From Macrocystis pyrifera (taxonomy: Eukaryota > Sar > Phaeophyceae > Laminariales > Laminariaceae), in assembly GCA_031763025.1 (NCBI GenBank), contig JASSKH010000028.1, positions 1,922,001-1,986,000 on the forward strand: 64,000 nucleotides of DNA. The letters run 5' to 3'. The notes beneath the pieces were generated by a model. That model had not been told where the DNA came from and did no database searches. It saw only the letters and a program-made list of their open reading frames with translations. Shown in pieces: positions 36,906 through 47,282 of the stretch; the first letter of the stretch is position 1; each line of letters begins with the position of its first letter. A program made the position numbers and the translations under genes.

Positions 36906-37595
36906 CGAACTATTATTATTATTATTATCGGCAAATAAATGCCAAAATCAGGTATACCTGATCCGTTTGAGCCAAAAATCAGGTACTTGTACATACTAAA
37001 ACCAAGTAAAAAACGCGCGCCACGAGCGGTGTGATGTCCATGACAATCCGGTAAAAAAGAATGCGCCTGAAGCATTAAGCGTGCCACATGGCTTCCAAAA
37101 TCTGAATCGTTTTGTTTTCTTCACGGTGTAGGTACCACGGGCTCCACTTGGACCTGCAAAGAGTCACTATTAATATGCTTCGTTTGTTTCGCCACGGCGG
37201 GAGCGCCAAGAGTATTACTCTGGCGCCCCCCCCCCGTTGACAGCTAAAGCTTCCAGACCGTCCTCGCGGAACCGCCTGCTCGGAAATTATCTTGCCGTAC
37301 CAAACCTGAGACCACTTCGACGCGGGATGGTGCAGACGAAATAAATGTCGTGTGTGGCCATGGTGCTGTAAAAAGACTGCTGTGTGCTGTGAGCATAGAA
37401 AACAACAGAGTACACACAACAACTAACTACTGAAGCACATCGCACACCCCAAAGGAGAAAAAGTGAAACCAGGGTATACGCATTAGCTATTAATAGTACG
37501 CATGTACGTTCATTGTATATACGTACTTTTACGTACGACATACGAGTACTGCTGTAACAGAGTTAATACGTCGATACAGAAGAATTTCAACCGAG
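36906..37595. other. No gene recognised
   Basis: An ATT microsatellite at 36911-36927, then ATCAGGTATACCTGATC with GAGCCAAAAATCAGG. The same short motif pair recurs on the far side of the Ty3 element (46846-46990). No domain-bearing frame. Confidence 0.45.
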
Positions 37596-37883
37596 TGTTA
37601 AGATCAAGGGTTGCGGGACACTTTGTATCCCTGGACAGGTCTGCCTTTTAAGTCGGTAAACGTTGCACTCACATGTGTTGTTTGTGTTATGAGGCTTAGC
37701 TATAGAAGAAGCGCAGTTTTATTCCTTTCGTGCACGCGGAGACTGAGACCAAGCTCGTGCTCCTCTGGAAAACCCCTGGTTTTCCATCTAAGATACGCCT
37801 TCCAAGTACTACAAATACGTTCCCAGTGACTGAACCCAGGTAGTTACCGGGCTTTCAATCTCATACAAGACCATATCTTAACA
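37596..37883 (-). repeat. Ty3 3' LTR
   Basis: 288 bp. On the minus strand it starts TGTTAAGATATGG and ends GATCTTAACA, so the termini are the inverted TGTTAAGAT / ATCTTAACA. The 69 bp at its start match the 5' remnant at 46665-46733 with one mismatch. Confidence 0.9.
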
Positions 37884-38446: not shown

Positions 38447-39462
38447 TCAGCTATCCACGGCGGCACCTCGAGATTCATCTACGTTACGCTGGACTCCCCG
38501 TGTAAACGCGCTAGCCAAGTGAATTTGCAGACACCAAGAACCTCGTACAGCTCTCGTCGAAGTCGTGTAGCGCGCCGGAGAAAGAGGAAGCTTGATTGGT
38601 CCCGGGTCGTCCAAAAATCGAACAAAATATTCTCCATCCGTCGGTGTAGTTGCGCTGATTTTCCCGAGCCACCACAGACCGTCGTCGCCCTTGTACCAAA
38701 AGTGGGCCCCGTTCGGAAGTACAGTGTTGCTGTATCGGCGGAGCCAATCGGCGTGCGATACGCAACCATAGCCGGGTGCTAGAAACCACTCGCCGTTGCT
38801 CCGGGAAAGCTCCCGTTGTGCCGCGCCAATTCTCATTCGGCGATACAGGCGGTTGGTTTGGCGGTGTTGGTTCGGAGTGCCGGCCCAGTAGCGCAAAATT
38901 GCGTGGCGAGAAAGCTGAAGGTCCATTTCCCGTTCCCAGGAGGGAGGGGAAAGTCCCTTCCAGTGCGTCTCGTACATCACCGCGATGACGCCACCTCGAC
39001 CTCTAACCGATTGATGTCCAGTAATCTTTTCCACTTCGAGTCGTTCAAGAGGGGTCGAAACATCGTCCTCGGTGACGTGGTACGGAGGGGATTTCTTGGA
39101 GAAATTGTTGAGCACGTATTGCGTCAACCCCGTCGGCAGATACTTCGGCATGTCGCCACGGTCGTGGGGGTTGGCACAGGGCTTGCAGCGTTGAACTGAT
39201 ACGCGCCGGCAAGCCTCGGCGCCGGGCATATCGGAAGGAAGATCCAAATACAGGAGCTTTGCTCCGAGAGGAGATCCATCCGGGGTGTCTGCAGAGGAGC
39301 AGGGGCCAACTGCGAGAACTTTGTAGGGGCCCGTCCAGTTGAGGGAGAGTTTGGCCCTGAGGACCTTGGCGTCCGTGTCTGGTTTCGCGCCCTGGCGGAT
39401 GGTGGCCGCCGTATTGTACACCCACACCCAACCACCAACGTCAAATTTGGGGACCGGACTAA
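38447..39462 (-). pseudogene. Integrase tail with GPY module, chromodomain and Tudor-like module
   Basis: The frame follows the integrase core after a frameshift near 39460 (FDVGGWVWVYNT). LNWTGPYKVLAVG (about residues 29-41) is the GPY/F module. LERLEVEKITGH, VMYETHWKGLSPPSWERE and ILRYWAG (about 125-185) form a chromodomain, which in chromoviruses binds histone marks and steers integration to silent chromatin. About 60 residues on, HFWYKGDDGLWWLGKIS and DGEYFVRFLDDPG look like a Tudor or Agenet-type barrel, also a histone-reading fold. The chromodomain call is firm; the Tudor call rests on the W-x-GKI and YFVRFLDD pattern only. Confidence 0.75.
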
Positions 39463-40616: not shown

Positions 40617-41458
40617 TTATCCCCGAGCCCAGTCGGCGTGCGAATAGCGCGCTGCGGAATCACCGAACTGAAACTCGGCAGCTGCGCCGAGTGCGTCCAA
40701 GTCGGTCGAGGTGACGGGAGGTGCGTCAGTTGGCGGCGGAAGTTGTAAAAGAGGAGTTCCCACGGGCTCGGTGCGGTCGGTCGCGGCCGGATGGGATGGG
40801 TACCGTCGGGACGGACGAGGCGGCAGGAGTCGGGGCCAAAACGACGGGTGCGGGCGGTCGTGGCCGTGGGGCTCGCAGCGGGGTGTGGTAGCGCGCCGGG
40901 CTGATGGTCTAGGGGTCCCGCCGGGCCCGAAGCCATAATCAACAGCATGCGGCACGGCGCCAGCGGCGGCGGCTGTTCGTCGGCGCGTCCGCGATGAGAT
41001 GCGGCCTGAAGACGGCAAGACGTTCGGAGGCGCCGGGTTGCCAGGCGGCGATGGGGTAGACGCGGCCGGATCAGTGATCACGGCGGAATCTTTTCCCTGT
41101 AAAGTGCTCGTCGGGGGAGGAGCATGCTGGGCGACAATCGTCGCTGCATCGGGGGCTTCTGCGGAGCCCTGGCCTGAAAGGGAAGACGCGGCCGGAGCAG
41201 TGCTCACGACGGAATCTTTTCCCTGTAAAGTGCTCGTCGGGGGAGGAGCGCGCTGGGCGACAATCGTCGCTGCAGCGGGGGCTTTTGCAGAGCCCTGGCC
41301 TGAGAGGGAAGACGCGGCCGGAGCAGTGCTCACGACGGAATCTCCGACCTGTAAAGTGCTCGTCGGGGGAGGAGCGCGCTGGGCGACAATCGTCGCTGCA
41401 GCGGGGGCTTTTGCAGAGCCCTGGCCTGAGAGGGAAGACGCGGCCGGAGCAGTGCTCA
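40617..41458 (-). pseudogene. Proline/alanine-rich linker between RNase H and integrase
   Basis: A frame in phase with the integrase. Most of it is Ala/Pro/Ser/Thr-rich and encodes the tandem repeat at 41059-41562; the rest is Arg/Pro-rich, ending FGDSAARYSHADWARG. Ty3 elements normally pass from RNase H to integrase with a short tether, so the extra 280 residues are unusual. Confidence 0.6.
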
Positions 41459-41562
41459 CGGCGGAATCTTCGACCTGTAAAGTGCTCGTCGGGGAAGGAG
41501 CACGCTGGGCGACAAACGTCGCTGCAGCGGGGGCTTCTGCAGAGCCCTGGTCGCCCCCGGAG
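41059..41562 (-). repeat. 126-bp tandem repeat, four units, in the pol linker
   Basis: Units at 41059, 41185, 41311 and 41437, each GACGCGGCCGGA... onward. 126 bp is 42 codons, so the repeat keeps frame and encodes Ala/Pro-rich units with SLSGQGSA and PPTSTLQ. Units differ by only a few bases. Confidence 0.92.
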
Positions 41563-42397
41563 GGTACGACAAAAAAACCGAAGCGAAAGCGGCGGTGGCG
41601 GGGGGTGAAAAATCCCCCAAGCCAGGACGGCGGTCGACGGTGGCGACGGAGGCAGATACACGAGCGACGAATCTCCCCGAAGGAGCAGAGAGGTCGTCAA
41701 TCCTCATACGTGACCCGTGTGTGCGAAAATCGCGAAAATCCGAAGGGGCGAGAGGTAGCCCACCCAAGACGGCACTTTCACTGCGGGACACCAGCCCACC
41801 CAAACCGACACCAGGGGTCGGCGAAGAGCGAGTGTGAAGCCCGCAGGCTCGGATGAGGAAGATACCACCGTCCTCGACGGGGTTGAGGCAGCTAGACCCA
41901 CTGCGGTCGTGTTCTGTGGCGGGCTCTTGCAAGCGGGAGAGGAAGTCAGCATTTCCGTTGGCGCTGCCCTTGCGGTACTCGAGGGTGTGGTCGAACGCGG
42001 TGAGGAACTCGAGCCACCGCTGGACTCGCGCGTTGTGGTCCCCTACTTTGGCGATACTCTCAAGTGCTTTGTGATCCGAAAATATTCGAAACTTCGTGCC
42101 CCACAGGTAACCTCGGAGTCGTTTGATAGCCCAGACAATGCTGCCAGCTTCCAGGTCCAACGGTGTCTAGTGCCTTTCGGAATCGAGAGTAGCGCGGCTG
42201 ATATAAGCAATGGGCCGTACCGAGCCGTCCGGTTGTTCTTGTTCGAGCGCGGCACCGAAACCGTCGATGCAGGCGTCGCAGTACACGTGGAAGGGGCGGG
42301 AGCCGTCGGCTACGGCATCCCAGTCAGGGAAGACCAAAATCGGTGGGGCCGCGAGGATCTGGCGGACGATAACTTCCATAGCCGGCGTGAAGACATA
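41459..42397 (-). pseudogene. RNase H of the Ty3 element
   Basis: PAMEVIVRQIL leads into FHVYCDACIDGFGAAL (first Asp) and IAYISRATLDSERH. A TAG at 42167-42169 replaces the usual Trp, and the frame resumes TPLDLEAGSIVWAIKRLR (Glu), FRIFSDHKALESI (Asp), then KGSANGNADFLSRL (Asp). After about 60 residues it becomes low complexity and shifts frame into the linker near 41460. All four acidic residues are present. Confidence 0.85.
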
Positions 42398-43489
42398 CTT
42401 GACCCCCTTCCGGAGAAGGGCGGTGAGAGGACGTATCCGTTTAGACAGGTCGGGCAGGAATTTGCGATAATATCCTACGCCGCCCCCATCAGGGCGCGGA
42501 CCAGCTTGAGGTTCTTGGGCATGGGCATTTTCAGCAAGGCCGAAACTTTGTCCGCATTAGGGCTTATACCCCGGGCGCGAAATAGAGTGGCCCAGAAAAT
42601 TTGCGTCCGTGGCGCCGAGGCGAGCCTTCGAGGGGGAGAGCTTGAAGTTGTGTTTGCGCAGGCGTTCGAAGAGGGCTCGTATCGTCTTGACGTGGGCCGT
42701 CGGGTCAGAGTCGAAAACGATCACATCATCAAGGTACGCCGCCACCTGTGCCAGGCCTTTAATGACTTCGTTAATCACTTTGACGAACCAGCCGGGCGAA
42801 GCACTGCTGCCTTGGGGCGTGACGAGCCACTCGTAAAGGCCCGTGGGGGTGCAGAACGCCGTAAGAGGGACGGTGTCCTTGTGCGCGGTAATCTGGTGAA
42901 ACGAGGAGACCAAATCGAAGAGGGAAAACACCCGTCCCTTCCCCAGGGAGTCGAGGACTTGGTCCACGCGAGGGATAGGCAGCTGGCTGAGTTTGCTGAT
43001 CTGGTTGAGTTTTTTGTAGTTCACGGTGATCCGAACGCCTCCAGACTTCTTCGGGATGACCACCAGCGGGCTCGAGTACGGAGAAGTCGAGTGCTGGATC
43101 AGACCAGCCGCTAGGTACTGATCCAAGGTGGCCTCCACTTCCTTGGCCAGGATGGGGTTGATGCGGTGCGGCCTGGACGTGACAGGAGCGCTTCCTTCCG
43201 GGACCGAGATCACGAAAGGCATCAACGAGCAGGAACCAAAATCCGACTTGGACTTCGAGAAAACGTCAGGAAATTCGCAGAGAACGTCCCCCAGCTGTTC
43301 AATGACGGCAGGGGTCCAGCCTGTGCCGTGGAGATCAAAAGCCACCTCCCGCAGATGTGTCGGCAAGCGTGCCCAGACGCGCAGGAACGAAGCGCGCTGT
43401 TCTGAGGTCAAACGCTCAAGCAGTGCAGGCGGGGGCGAGGCTGGAGCTGCGAGGGGGGGGGGGGGGGAGTAACTGCTGAAACCGGACAC
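42398..43489 (-). pseudogene. Reverse transcriptase of the Ty3 element
   Basis: HRINPILAKEVEATLDQYL, VVIPKKSGGVRITVNYKKLN, FSLFDLVSSFHQI (motif A Asp), TPQGSSASPGWF (motif B), AAYLDDVIVFD (motif C, 42725-42736), NFLGHSIS. Single-base changes near 42565 and 42467 shift the frame before the connection to RNase H (ISPNADKV, GYYRKFLPDLS). The upstream join to the protease frame lies at a run of 15 G (43453-43467). Confidence 0.88.
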
Positions 43490-45015
43490 ACCTCACCTAG
43501 TCTGGAGGGAGGGCTGGGGGCTCGGTTGTCCTGCTGCAAAACGTCCAGCAGAACGCTCAGCAGTGGGGCGTGGGCGACGCCGAGGACATCCCCCGGCTCG
43601 AGAGCCGTCACTCCAACGAGGCGAAGAACCTGTCGTCCAGAGGAGACGAAGTGCTCCTCGACCGAGGGTAGGTCGGGCTGGGGCATCATGTCGACCAAGT
43701 AGTGTCCAGTGAGGGCCGGGGAGCCATCGCTTCGAACCAAATTAACAGCAAGCAGCTGGGGATCGTCTGACAGGGTGACGCCTGCTGCGCCCTCGTAGCG
43801 TAGATGGAAGCCTCCAGCCGAAGCGGCGGAGTCGATGGCGTACACGGACATGCCTGTCGGGGCGTGGTGAACTAACTCCAGCTCGCCAAAAACGCGGTGA
43901 TCAGACGGCCGAGGTGGCAGAGAGCGGTAGGAGCGGCTATTAAAGCGCATCCAGCTGTCACGTCCCAATAGTACAGCATGCTGCATCACCGAGGGGGGGA
44001 CCACGCAGGCCCAAACTGCGAGGGAGCAAGTAGGCTCATTTTCTCGAAAAAATTGGACGCTCAGGCGCACACTCGTCGAAGTCTTCAGAGGGGCCGATTC
44101 GCCAAAACCCCCCCAAGAACGAGGGGCGCCTTTCTGCTCGCACGCGAGGGAGGCCGCACCAACCGAGTGCATGCGATCCAAAACATCTCGTCGGATGAAA
44201 GTCTGCGGGGAGCCAGTGTCGAGAAGCGCCACGCAACCAAAAGGTGCAAGAACGCCAGCTCCGCTGTGAATCGCGATTTTCGTTGTAAAAGAGGCGTCAT
44301 CGAGGGTAATGGTGCCCCCGACGAGGCAGGGGCCGTGTTCTGGCAGCGCGAGGGAGGGGTCGACACTAGGTGCGACAGCCAAAATCTCCGGGCTGTGATC
44401 AGCCGGTGCGTCAGAAAAATAGGTCGAAAACTCCAAAGGAGGACCTGGGCAAGCGCGGGCCACGGCCAAAGGGCGGGGCGGCGCTGGTGTAATCTCATGA
44501 ATTCTGTCAGGTCTGGTTGGGGTGCAGAATTGGTGAGAGGAGGCGGGGTGTGCCAACCCGGCCTCACTTGATCGGAGGGTGTCGCGAACGGCGGAAAGAG
44601 CTTTACCGAGCAAATTTTTTCCACGCCACCGAGAGGGATCGTGAGCTTCGGGGTCGTCTGCCCGCAAACCGATGCTCCACACGGCATCAAAAGGGCTGGC
44701 TTCAGCCAAAATTTTGGTGCCAGTGCTCAATAGGTGCTGCTTCATGAACGGGTTCTGCGAGAATTTGGCAAAATTACCAGCAAGGACGGCGTCTTCCCGA
44801 ACACGGTCCCAGATAGCGCAGTCGAAGTTATGCACGCCTCGACCGAGGCGTTTGTGCTCGCGTGGGTCTGGCGAGGTCATAATCCGCTCCGTTGAGCCGT
44901 GGTCCTGGAAAAGGCGAGCCTTTTCAGCCATCATGTACTGCTCCGCGCAGGAATATGATGCATCGTCGACGACAAAAGACGAGGGAGACCACTGCGAAAA
45001 ATAAGAGGGGGGCTG
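43408..45015 (-). pseudogene. NADAR domain and aspartic protease of the Ty3 polyprotein
   Basis: The frame opens right after a TAG at 45016-45018. The first about 150 residues (45009-44560) are a NADAR/YbiA-like domain: YFSQWSPSSFVVDD, SCAEQYMMAEKARLF, NPFMKQHLLSTG, FDAVWSIGLRADDP and WRGKNLLGKALSAVR. Each block matches the family signature, including the Glu of AEQY, the Trp of W-x-I-G-L and the K-N-x-L-G loop. NADAR enzymes remove ADP-ribose from modified guanine in DNA in bacterial DarT1-NADAR systems and act on riboflavin intermediates in other cases. About 90 residues later CVALLDTGSPQTFIR (DTG at 44209-44220) is a retroviral-type protease, with VLLGRDSW as its second strand. Placement inside one uninterrupted 500-codon frame shows a fused protein, not a captured neighbour gene. 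The last about 200 residues are a linker to the reverse transcriptase. Confidence 0.85.
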
Positions 45016-46664
45016 CTAGAACAGTACCACCCGCTCCGTTGTATACTCGAGAGTAGGGTCAAAAACCGACGGTGCCGAGTCGTCGGTGGCCGCAGTTGCG
45101 GCGTGTGGGGGGGGGAATGTTCTTCTCTGAGAACACTGAGCCCCTGGTGCACGAGGCGAGTCCGGTTCCACGTATACTGGCTCTGTGTCACCATTGCCCG
45201 TAGGCAAAAAATTGCCAGAAGGCTCTCTTGCTGCGCCCGATGATCTCTGTCCTGGACCAAAGGGGGCAGGGGGCTCTGAGCCCGTTCTGCTTGACGAGAG
45301 CTGCGATTCTTCCGAATTTAACGGGTATGCTGTCCGGTTGATCTGACCGGAGGCCGTGGAGTCACCACTGGCTCGACGGACAGTGCCAGGTTTTTCCTGT
45401 TCCACTGGAGCCGAAGGAGCGCTGCGCACGTGGAGTGGCGTGCGCGAAGACGAAAGAGGGCCTGCAGATCCTGTAGACGTCTTCAAGAACGGTGCTCGGG
45501 TGGGGGGCAACAAAGGGTCCACCGGAGAGAGCTTCCGTCCTGTAGACCTGGTGGGGAAGGGGGACGAGGTAGCTAATCTTGTCGACTCCTCCTTAATAGG
45601 AAAAAGGGTGGAGCGGCCACCGTTGTTGCGAGGAAACGCCGAGTCGAGCTTCAACCGAGATCTCGGGGTTTCGGTGTTTGCCTTCCCGCACCTCAAACCG
45701 ACCGCCACCGCATGGCCGGGAGGTGTAGGAGGGGGACACCCTCGCTGAAAAAAAACGACGACGCGACGGCGCGACACCCGTCATGTTGCGCGGTGCGTGG
45801 TTTGGGAGAGAGGCGTTAATCGCGCCTGCTCTCGTGCCCAGGTTGAGGGGAGCGGCGTTTGAGGCGCGGGCTCCCGACGTCGGGGAAGGCGCCCGAGGGC
45901 TCCCCGGAAAAAGCTGTGGAGCTGAGTCGCTGCGTCGGTCCGAAGTACGGAGTAACGCGCGGGGCGGGAGCGGAGTACTGAGCGAGCCTGGGACGCGAGC
46001 ATCTTGTGAAATCAAGGTTTTTTCTCCTGACAATGCTGGTGGCGGGCGGTCAGGAGAAGCCGAACTGCCGTCGACCTGTCAGTTACCGGCGCGGAAGGTG
46101 CCTGGCTGGCGTCCATTCGGGTTTCCGCCCGAGGTATGCGAGGCGCCGTAGCGAACCCCCGAGACGGGAGCCGGGGCGGAAGAGGCAGGGGCGGTCGAAC
46201 CACCATGATGGCCGGGGTGAGACTGCTGGTGTCCTCGTGCCGCGTGTGTGTTGTAGCCATCACCTTGTCTGTGTTGCTGACCCTGACCGTGATGTTGCCC
46301 ACGCGAGGGGCCGGGAGGTGTAGGAGGGGGACACCCTCACTGAAAAAAACGACGCGCCGGCGCGACACCCGTCGTGTTGCGCGGTGCGTGGTTTGGGAGA
46401 GAGGCGTTAATCGCGCCTGCTCTCGTGCCCAGGTTGAGGGGAGCGGCGTTTGAGGCGCGGGCTCCCGACGTCGGGGAAGGCGCCCGAGGGCTCCCCGGAA
46501 AAGGCTGTGGAGCTGAGTCGCTGCGTCGGTCCGAAGTACGGAGTAACGCGCGGGGCGGGAACGGAGTACTGAGCGAGCCTGGGACGCGAGCATCTTGTGA
46601 AATCAAGGTTTTTTCTCCTGACAATGCTGGTGGCGGGCGGTCAGGAGAAGCCGAACCGCCGTCG
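45016..46664 (-). pseudogene. Gag-side region with a large direct repeat
   Basis: Frames are Ser/Pro/Arg-rich with no capsid or zinc-knuckle motif that I recognise. The region holds a duplication of about 360 bp (45715-46074 and 46310-46665). The nearest frame (45777-45019) reads directly into the NADAR frame across one TAG, so the stop could be mutation or a natural gag/pol boundary. Confidence 0.55.
45715..46074 (-). repeat. Direct repeat, inner copy
   Basis: Matches 46310-46665 at roughly 97 percent, offset about 595 bp. Small length differences lie in an A-run and an ACG repeat. Confidence 0.9.
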
Positions 46665-46665
46665 A
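46310..46665 (-). repeat. Direct repeat, outer copy, abutting the LTR remnant
   Basis: Ends at GCCGTCGA exactly where the 69-bp LTR remnant begins (ATACGTTCCC), with no primer-binding site between. The missing 219 bp of LTR and the gag start were therefore deleted, or lost in assembly. Confidence 0.9.
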
Positions 46666-46733
46666 TACGTTCCCAGTGACTGAACCCAGGTAGTTACCGG
46701 GCTTTCAATCTCATTCAAGACCATATCTTAACA
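46665..46733 (-). repeat. Ty3 5' LTR remnant
   Basis: 69 bp identical, apart from one base, to the start of the 3' LTR; followed by the CGAG target duplication. Confidence 0.9.
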
Positions 46734-47282
46734 CGAGGGAGGGCAGACGCATACATACGGAGACAAAACATAGTGTACGTATGGCCTCTCTGATTGGTTC
46801 AAAGTTGGCAAAAATCAGTTGAAAGCTAGACAGAGTGTAGAAAAAATCAGGTATACCTCGGCTTTTTCGAGCCAAAATCAGTTACGATACGATGTCAGCC
46901 TGGCCAATATAGCAGGGCTGGGTGTGTTTTGTACTTACTTGTTTTTAGAATACAACTGATTTTGGCCCAAAAGTAGCCAGGTATACCTGATTTTGGCTAA
47001 AACCCTAATATTATAACTATTTTTTTTATAAATTTTGAAAAATTTCCGGTGTCTTGGTGTGTATGTCACGTGTGAACCTGCTGTAAACCAACTTTCGACT
47101 GTCTTGTGTACCCCGGCCCTCACGTGTCGATCTGCTGTTTCAGTGCGCGAAATGGTACTGGCCGAAATCAATTGGAAATCGAACCAGCTGTAAGTATTAT
47201 CGTCTCGTCGACCCTGGTGGCATCCAGGGGAGTCTCTGGCCAGTAGTCAATCGCGAGGGAAATAATGGAAAACGCGCGCGGT
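46734..47282. other. No gene recognised
   Basis: AT-rich with several CAGGTATACCTGATTTTGGC-like motifs (46848-46995) shared with 36945-36985. Confidence 0.45.

What the first reader, a model, noticed from the sequence alone, without database searches (positions are those of the whole stretch)
44560..45015. NADAR (YbiA-like) domain fused into a Ty3/gypsy polyprotein, directly ahead of the protease
Seen: one open frame runs from AEQYMMAEKARLF through VWSIGL and WRGKNLLGKAL to the protease DTG. Established: NADAR proteins remove ADP-ribose, including from guanine in DNA in DarT1-NADAR toxin-antitoxin systems. Inference: the element may use it to protect its DNA or RNA intermediates from ADP-ribosylation by the host, or to act on nucleotides. 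I know of no description of this domain as part of a chromovirus Gag-Pol, but I could not search.
Basis: partly seen in the sequence, partly recalled or inferred. Interest (0 to 1): 0.92.

Follow-up and report, generated by a model that had tools for sequence, protein, structure and literature searches.

The report
Bacterial-type NADAR domain in kelp retrotransposons
A family of jumping genes in what appears to be the giant-kelp genome carries, fused into its replication protein, a bacterial-type enzyme domain that elsewhere strips ADP-ribose from DNA and RNA; the fusion is real and looks kept by selection, but it was already reported in a related brown alga in 2025, and what it does there is untested.

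The parts
44572..45015 (-). NADAR (YbiA-family) domain
45016..45018 (-). in-frame stop at the N-terminal edge of the domain in this copy (copies without it exist)
44209..44229 (-). aspartic protease motif ALLDTGS, 113 residues after NADAR, same frame
   Evidence: the Pfam scan of the ORF 43408-44934 listed NADAR alone at E up to 0.01, so the protease is called by motif (recalled) only
42557..43489 (-). reverse transcriptase piece
   Evidence: RVT_1 99 bits, E 3.8e-28
41456..42160 (-). RNase H piece
   Evidence: RT_RNaseH 52.2 bits
39459..40589 (-). integrase piece (H2C2 zinc-binding 46 bits, rve core 33.4 bits)
38885..39037 (-). probable chromodomain behind the integrase
   Evidence: PF00385 19.6 bits, E 8.7e-4, below cut-off 25.1 (coordinates)
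37596..37883 (-). 3' LTR, 288 bp, TGTTAAG...CTTAACA
   Evidence: its first part is found at 40 scored places of 1345 candidates in the genome
46665..46733 (-). truncated 5' LTR (69 bp, 1 mismatch to the 3' LTR) abutting the start of pol; gag is missing in this copy
   Evidence: gag-type sequence with zinc-knuckle motif lies upstream in other copies
46734..46737 (-). CTCG next to the outer end of the 5' LTR, repeated at 37592-37595 next to the 3' LTR: read as a 4-bp target-site duplication

Best explanation
The window holds a damaged insertion of a Ty3/Gypsy-type LTR retrotransposon family whose Pol carries a bacterial-type YbiA-family NADAR domain between an N-terminal spacer and the protease. 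The domain was probably taken up once, from a bacterium or phage, before the family split into at least four lineages in this genome, and has been kept by purifying selection with its ADP-ribose pocket nearly intact. Most likely mechanism (inferred): the domain is an active ADP-ribosyl hydrolase carried with the replication machinery that removes ADP-ribose, most plausibly from guanine bases, on the element's RNA or cDNA, so that a host ADP-ribosylation response does not block reverse transcription. Shown: domain, position, copy number, lineages, residue conservation, constraint, predicted fold. Inferred: single uptake and its source, enzyme activity, substrate, host attack.
For: Family match and model match to the ADP-ribose complex 8BAU, 35% identity, rmsd 1.8 over 147 residues. 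NADAR upstream of RT in 19 of 20 copies taken as every third of ranks 2-59 in an RT search of 128 places; the one without it, L043, has an LTR just ahead of its RT, which I read as an internal deletion. Four lineages A-D; in B, C and D a NADAR lies beside an RT of 71-77% identity to the window's (for D in 2 of 3 places fetched). Of 11 ADP-ribose-contacting positions (list from PMC11543638), 10 have the same majority residue in all four lineages, against 51 of 145 columns in general; hypergeometric P 1.2e-4, columns taken as exchangeable. The YbiA-class glutamate E125 is kept in 57 of 57 distinct copies. dN/dS between lineages 0.12-0.27 in five of six pairs, within lineages 0.33-0.60. NADARs remove ADP-ribose from guanine in DNA and RNA (PMC11833690, passages). 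NADARs sit in polyproteins of some RNA viruses (PMC9503650, passages).
Against: No activity data. No host ART known to target this element: DarT (PF14487) gave 0 matches, PARP one exon; two further families did not complete (PF01129, PF01885). D86 of 8BAU, which contacts the adenine-proximal ribose, is not kept: mostly C, E, Q, L in lineages A-D. In E. coli C7 NADAR, E88A (the E43 counterpart) had only a minor effect in vitro though E88Q was inactive. dS between lineages is near or at saturation, so those ratios are rough and the A-C pair gave none. Within-lineage ratios mix selection with decay of dead copies. One origin of the kelp NADARs has only 80/74 support, in a thinned tree; in the full tree the two halves are not joined.
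Confidence: 0.45

Rival explanations
1. The domain acts on small ADP-ribose derivatives, other ribosyl metabolites or damaged RNA ends during handling of the element's RNA (RNA processing or repair), as Dinatale et al. propose for RNA intermediates of Ectocarpus and oyster elements, rather than against a host attack.
For: Proposed in PMC12477816. PMC9503650 links NADAR to RNA repair with KptA and to riboflavin-pathway and ADP-ribose derivatives. Three of the 107 prokaryote and viral NADAR loci examined have a KptA/Tpt1 homologue within their flanks, one of them confirmed by Pfam (L071).
Against: Only 3 of 107 loci show that neighbour, with flanks of only 1500 or 3000 bases. No RNA-repair domain was seen in the pieces of the element that I scanned.
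Confidence: 0.22
2. The domain removes ADP-ribose from proteins (Gag, integrase or chromatin proteins modified by a host PARP), helping integration or evading a PARP-based response.
For: The genome has a PARP exon. PMC9503650 argues that NADAR and Macro domains in animal RNA viruses, being largely mutually exclusive, target similar macromolecular ADP-ribose. A probable chromatin-reader domain follows the integrase.
Against: In the passages I read, the NADAR activities shown are on nucleic-acid bases and on riboflavin-pathway intermediates; I saw none shown on protein there.
Confidence: 0.13
3. The domain is kept as a binding or folding module of Pol, for ADP-ribose, nucleotide or nucleic acid, without needed catalysis.
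For: D86 is lost in all four lineages. That retroelements recruit non-catalytic modules is recalled general knowledge.
Against: The counterparts of the residues tested in E. coli C7 NADAR (E88, K95, D171; here E43, K50 and E125 in 8BAU numbering) are kept in 57, 56 and 57 of 57 distinct copies.
Confidence: 0.15
4. A one-off chimera or dead passenger without function.
For: The window copy is broken, and 14 of 57 distinct domain copies carry an in-frame stop.
Against: 301 exact motif copies, four lineages with RT neighbours, between-lineage dN/dS 0.12-0.27 in five of six pairs, and the same kind of fusion in Ectocarpus.
Confidence: 0.05

Closest known systems
Gypsy-12_Ec32 and its lineage in Ectocarpus (Dinatale et al. 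2025, PMC12477816)
   Different: Different host (assembly statistics fit Macrocystis). I could not compare sequences or RT placement, since no Ectocarpus sequence was held. Four lineages, residue-level conservation and selection ratios are added here; I did not see their supplementary figures or tables, which show a NADAR alignment
Bacterial NADARs of Capnocytophaga, Xanthocytophaga, Prevotellaceae, Paenibacillus and others
   Same: 49-60% identity over almost the whole domain in the 80 loci kept of 169 confirmed; same conserved core
   Different: In prokaryote genomes; 10 flanking ORFs of 6 of these loci were scanned and none hit a retroelement family (2 of the 10 hit nothing)
Phytophthora nicotianae NADAR (8BAU) and E. 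coli YbiA (2B3W)
   Different: Only 35% and 29% identity; Y84 is F and D86 is not kept
DarT1-NADAR toxin-antitoxin systems (BC4488 NADARs)
   Same: Superfamily; E88 and K95 counterparts kept
NADAR domains in ORF1 of oyster Tx1 LINEs and in polyproteins of some invertebrate RNA viruses
   Same: NADAR built into a retroelement or RNA-virus protein
   Different: Unrelated element types; sequences not compared here

Membership tests
NADAR superfamily | match to PF08719 above gathering score | tested here: met
   172.2 bits against 35.1
NADAR superfamily | YbiA fold | tested here: met
NADAR, YbiA subfamily | glutamate at the class-defining last-strand position (E125 in 8BAU) | tested here: met
   E in 57 of 57 distinct copies; class definition
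NADAR, YbiA subfamily | hydrolysis of guanine-linked ADP-ribose | not testable with these tools
   needs a biochemical assay
DarT1-NADAR toxin-antitoxin system | DarT toxin in the genome | tested here: not met
   0 candidates for PF14487, searched by exon without regard to introns
DarT1-NADAR toxin-antitoxin system | aspartate (D171 of E. coli C7) in place of E125 | tested here: not met
   glutamate in 57 of 57
Ty3/Gypsy (Metaviridae) | pol order protease, RT, RNase H, integrase | tested here: met
   (protease by motif only)
Ty3/Gypsy (Metaviridae) | LTRs with TG...CA ends | tested here: met
   288-bp 3' LTR; 5' LTR truncated in the window, fuller in L048
Ty3/Gypsy (Metaviridae) | Gag with CCHC zinc knuckle | tested here: met
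   C-x2-C-x4-H-x4-C in 3 of 6 lineage A loci and 3 of 4 lineage C loci examined; missing in the window copy; no Pfam Gag hit in three upstream pieces scanned
Ty3/Gypsy (Metaviridae) | RT groups with Ty3/Gypsy in a tree | not tested
   no named reference RTs were held
Chromovirus | chromodomain behind the integrase | tested here: inconclusive
   PF00385 19.6 bits against 25.1
Chromovirus | RT inside the chromovirus clade | not tested
   PMC12477816 reports Ectocarpus chromodomain lineages outside it
[quoted passage not shown]
Gypsy-12_Ec32 lineage | common descent shown by RT tree | not testable with these tools
   no Ectocarpus sequence came up in the collections at hand

The most novel reading that the evidence does not exclude
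A retrotransposon family carries its own nucleic-acid de-ADP-ribosylase inside Pol as a counter-defence, which would imply that brown algae modify retroelement RNA or cDNA with ADP-ribose as a form of genome defence. I saw no such mechanism described for an LTR retrotransposon in the search listings or in the passages read.
Probability: 0.3. Interest if true: 0.85.

Novelty: new member of a known kind. Interest (0 to 1): 0.45.

Why it matters
The fusion is no longer a surprise after the 2025 Ectocarpus report, but these data show that it is abundant and diverse in a second brown-alga genome, that the residues of the ADP-ribose pocket are among the best kept, and that the domain has probably travelled with its RT since before the four lineages split. 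That makes an enzymatic role the hypothesis to test and opens the question of whether brown algae use ADP-ribosylation of nucleic acid against retroelements. The copies also give a set of natural NADAR variants for work on substrate choice.

Tried and rejected
Chance or one-off chimera: rejected, by the 301 motif copies against 0 in the control (the pattern fits lineages A and B only, so C and D are not in that count), and by four lineages.

A 73-bp terminal repeat as a complete short LTR: rejected. Searches showed that the LTR is longer and that the window's 5' copy is cut where gag is missing.

The stop at the NADAR edge as a regulated site: rejected. Only 2 of 26 readable rows have it.

Gag-to-Pol stop readthrough: left open. 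A TGA in near-identical surroundings ends the gag frame in 16 of 20 copies, but the distance to NADAR is a multiple of three in only 5 of those 16, so old indels blur the frame. One copy, L055, has an open frame of 727 codons directly behind the stop, in the frame of its gag piece.

A DarT partner: none. PF01129 and PF01885 did not complete. A KptA neighbourhood of the prokaryote relatives is too rare to lean on (3 of 107).

A Tudor-like stretch behind the chromodomain: no Tudor family among Pfam hits up to E 1 for its ORF, no PDB sequence hit better than E 0.3.

Rows left out or not reached: one search found no NADAR in 3 of 30 RT loci with 1500-base flanks (L014, L022, L036; L022 is the place of L043). 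Four of 65 rows without a full-length domain (L039, L043, L054, L203) were left out of the residue and selection counts, and identical rows were merged to 57. Bootstraps used at most 25 pairs per comparison. The second tree dropped 6 long rows and 30 bacterial rows to save time (120 to 84 rows). L206, one of three lineage D places fetched for RT, showed none in the stretch fetched. The C-D NADAR identity was not obtained. The copies came from the top of a score-ranked list and so lean towards intact domains.

Full report
Where the window comes from. The window lies at G000:C209:1922001-1986000 in an assembly of 537,376,219 bases in 223 contigs. The giant kelp Macrocystis pyrifera reference has 537 Mb, 35 scaffolds and 188 contigs, 223 in all (PMC10498591, abstract and passages). 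The match is by assembly statistics, not by a marker gene.

The observation. PF08719 matches window 44572-45015 on the minus strand with 172.2 bits and E 3.5e-48, against a cut-off of 35.1. The ORF from its first ATG gives E 1.5e-39. The frame continues without a stop to an ALLDTGS protease motif 113 residues on. RT, RNase H and integrase pieces follow on the same strand, and a probable chromodomain follows the integrase (19.6 bits, below the cut-off of 25.1). The element's outer ends are a 3' LTR at 37596-37883 (TGTTAAG...CTTAACA, 288 bp) and a 5' LTR cut to 69 bp at 46665-46733, with CTCG next to both outer ends, read as a 4-bp target-site duplication. One of the 69 shared LTR positions differs.

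This copy is broken. Gag is missing: the 5' LTR remnant runs straight into sequence that in another copy (L055) lies just behind the gag stop. About 360 bp is present twice at a spacing of about 0.6 kb (45714-46074 and 46309-46665). A stop lies at the N-terminal edge of NADAR, and pol is split among frames. Copies without that stop exist.

It is a family, not a chimera. All 150 scored places of 1264 first-look candidates exceed the Pfam cut-off. The exact codon pattern for AEQxMMAxKA, which fits lineages A and B below but not C and D, occurs 168 times forward and 133 times reverse, and its reversed control never. In a sample taken by rank from an RT search (every third of ranks 2 to 59 of 128), 19 of 20 copies have NADAR upstream of RT. 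The exception, L043, has an LTR a few hundred bases ahead of its RT. Among the 30 best RT loci with 1500-base flanks, which overlap that sample, 27 show NADAR in the flank. With the oomycete NADAR as query further lineages appear. In all I distinguish four: A (the window), B, C and D. For each of B, C and D an RT related to the window's (71-77% identity) was read beside a NADAR; for D in 2 of 3 places.

Position in the element. In the upstream regions of lineage A copies a CCHC zinc-knuckle motif was found in 3 of 6 loci examined, and in 3 of 4 lineage C loci. A TGA in near-identical surroundings closes the gag frame in 16 of 20 lineage A copies, and NADAR begins about 1.1 kb further on in 15 of these (in L039, where the match starts within the domain, 1.3 kb). 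So NADAR belongs to the N-terminal part of Pol, between a spacer and the protease.

Selection. Pooled Nei-Gojobori ratios are 0.60, 0.42, 0.33 and 0.50 within A, B, C and D, with codon-bootstrap 5-95% ranges that all stay under 1. Between lineages they are 0.12-0.27 in five of six pairs; the A-C pair is saturated and gives no value. Between-lineage dS is 1.8 to 4.2 in those five, so the ratios are rough. In-frame stops occur in 10 of 25, 1 of 14, 2 of 11 and 1 of 7 distinct copies, so a good part of the single copies are dead.

Origin. The best relatives in the prokaryote collection are NADARs of bacteria (and one archaeon, L071) at 49-60% identity (169 confirmed, 80 kept); phage records reach 55% (674 records), IMG/VR contigs 54% (27 loci), and the oomycete 8BAU 35% by structure. 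In a thinned tree of 84 rows the 20 kelp sequences are one side of a branch (80/74, not strong). In the full tree of 120 rows only the pairs A+D (97/91) and B+C (96/80) are firm among the kelp lineages. RT identity is highest for B-C (83.3%), and the sums over the three possible pairings favour AD against BC, as in the NADAR tree (the sums are mine). This fits one uptake followed by descent with the element, but does not prove it. No eukaryote collection was at hand, so a eukaryotic donor is not excluded.

Prior art. Dinatale et al. 2025 (PMC12477816; passages and section 5 part 1 of 2 read; [quoted passage not shown] They also state that the Ectocarpus chromodomain Gypsy lineages are not chromoviruses. 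In the listings of my searches I saw no other description of NADAR in a retroelement. Searches returned 1, 0 and 2 papers in all; of the others I saw only the best 20, 20, 20 and 6 of 104, 206, 12,482 and 80. The library lacks most subscription journals and preprints.

Mechanism. NADARs remove ADP-ribose from guanine in DNA (PMC11543638) and from guanosine in RNA (PMC11833690, passages). A YbiA-class enzyme also serves as antitoxin in myxobacteria (PMC11125620, passages). With the pocket conserved through four old lineages and the domain made as part of Pol, I think it most likely that it acts as a hydrolase on the element's own RNA or cDNA. Whether there is a host attack is open: no DarT was found, one PARP exon was, and PF01129 and PF01885 did not complete. 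RNA processing, protein de-ADP-ribosylation and a purely binding role remain.

Verdict. Real, abundant, under constraint, and a new member of a kind first published, as far as I found, in 2025.

Noticed in passing
window 40928-41550 (-): A 126-bp tandem repeat (42-residue units, four copies) sits in pol between RNase H and integrase.
   Followed up: no
window 38501-38878 (-): Behind the chromodomain lies a stretch that looks to me (by eye, recalled pattern) like a Tudor domain; Dinatale et al. report chromodomain and Tudor in different Ectocarpus Gypsy lineages. No Tudor hit in Pfam and no convincing PDB sequence hit; the structure job failed.
   Followed up: partly
L039-L058, about 1.1 kb upstream of NADAR: A TGA in near-identical surroundings closes the gag frame in 16 of 20 copies, and in L055 an open 727-codon frame follows directly in the same frame: a candidate for stop-codon readthrough between Gag and Pol, though the frame to NADAR is kept in only 5 of the 16.
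   Followed up: partly
window 45714-46074 and 46309-46665: About 360 bp of the Pol N-terminal spacer is present twice at a spacing of about 0.6 kb, 97% identical, in this copy.
   Followed up: no
L071, L091, L127: Three of 107 prokaryote and viral NADAR loci have a KptA/Tpt1 RNA 2'-phosphotransferase homologue nearby.
   Followed up: partly
G000:C207:3553608-3553937: A lineage D NADAR lies in an open frame of 2349 codons, so that lineage may have Gag and Pol in one frame; not read.
   Followed up: no
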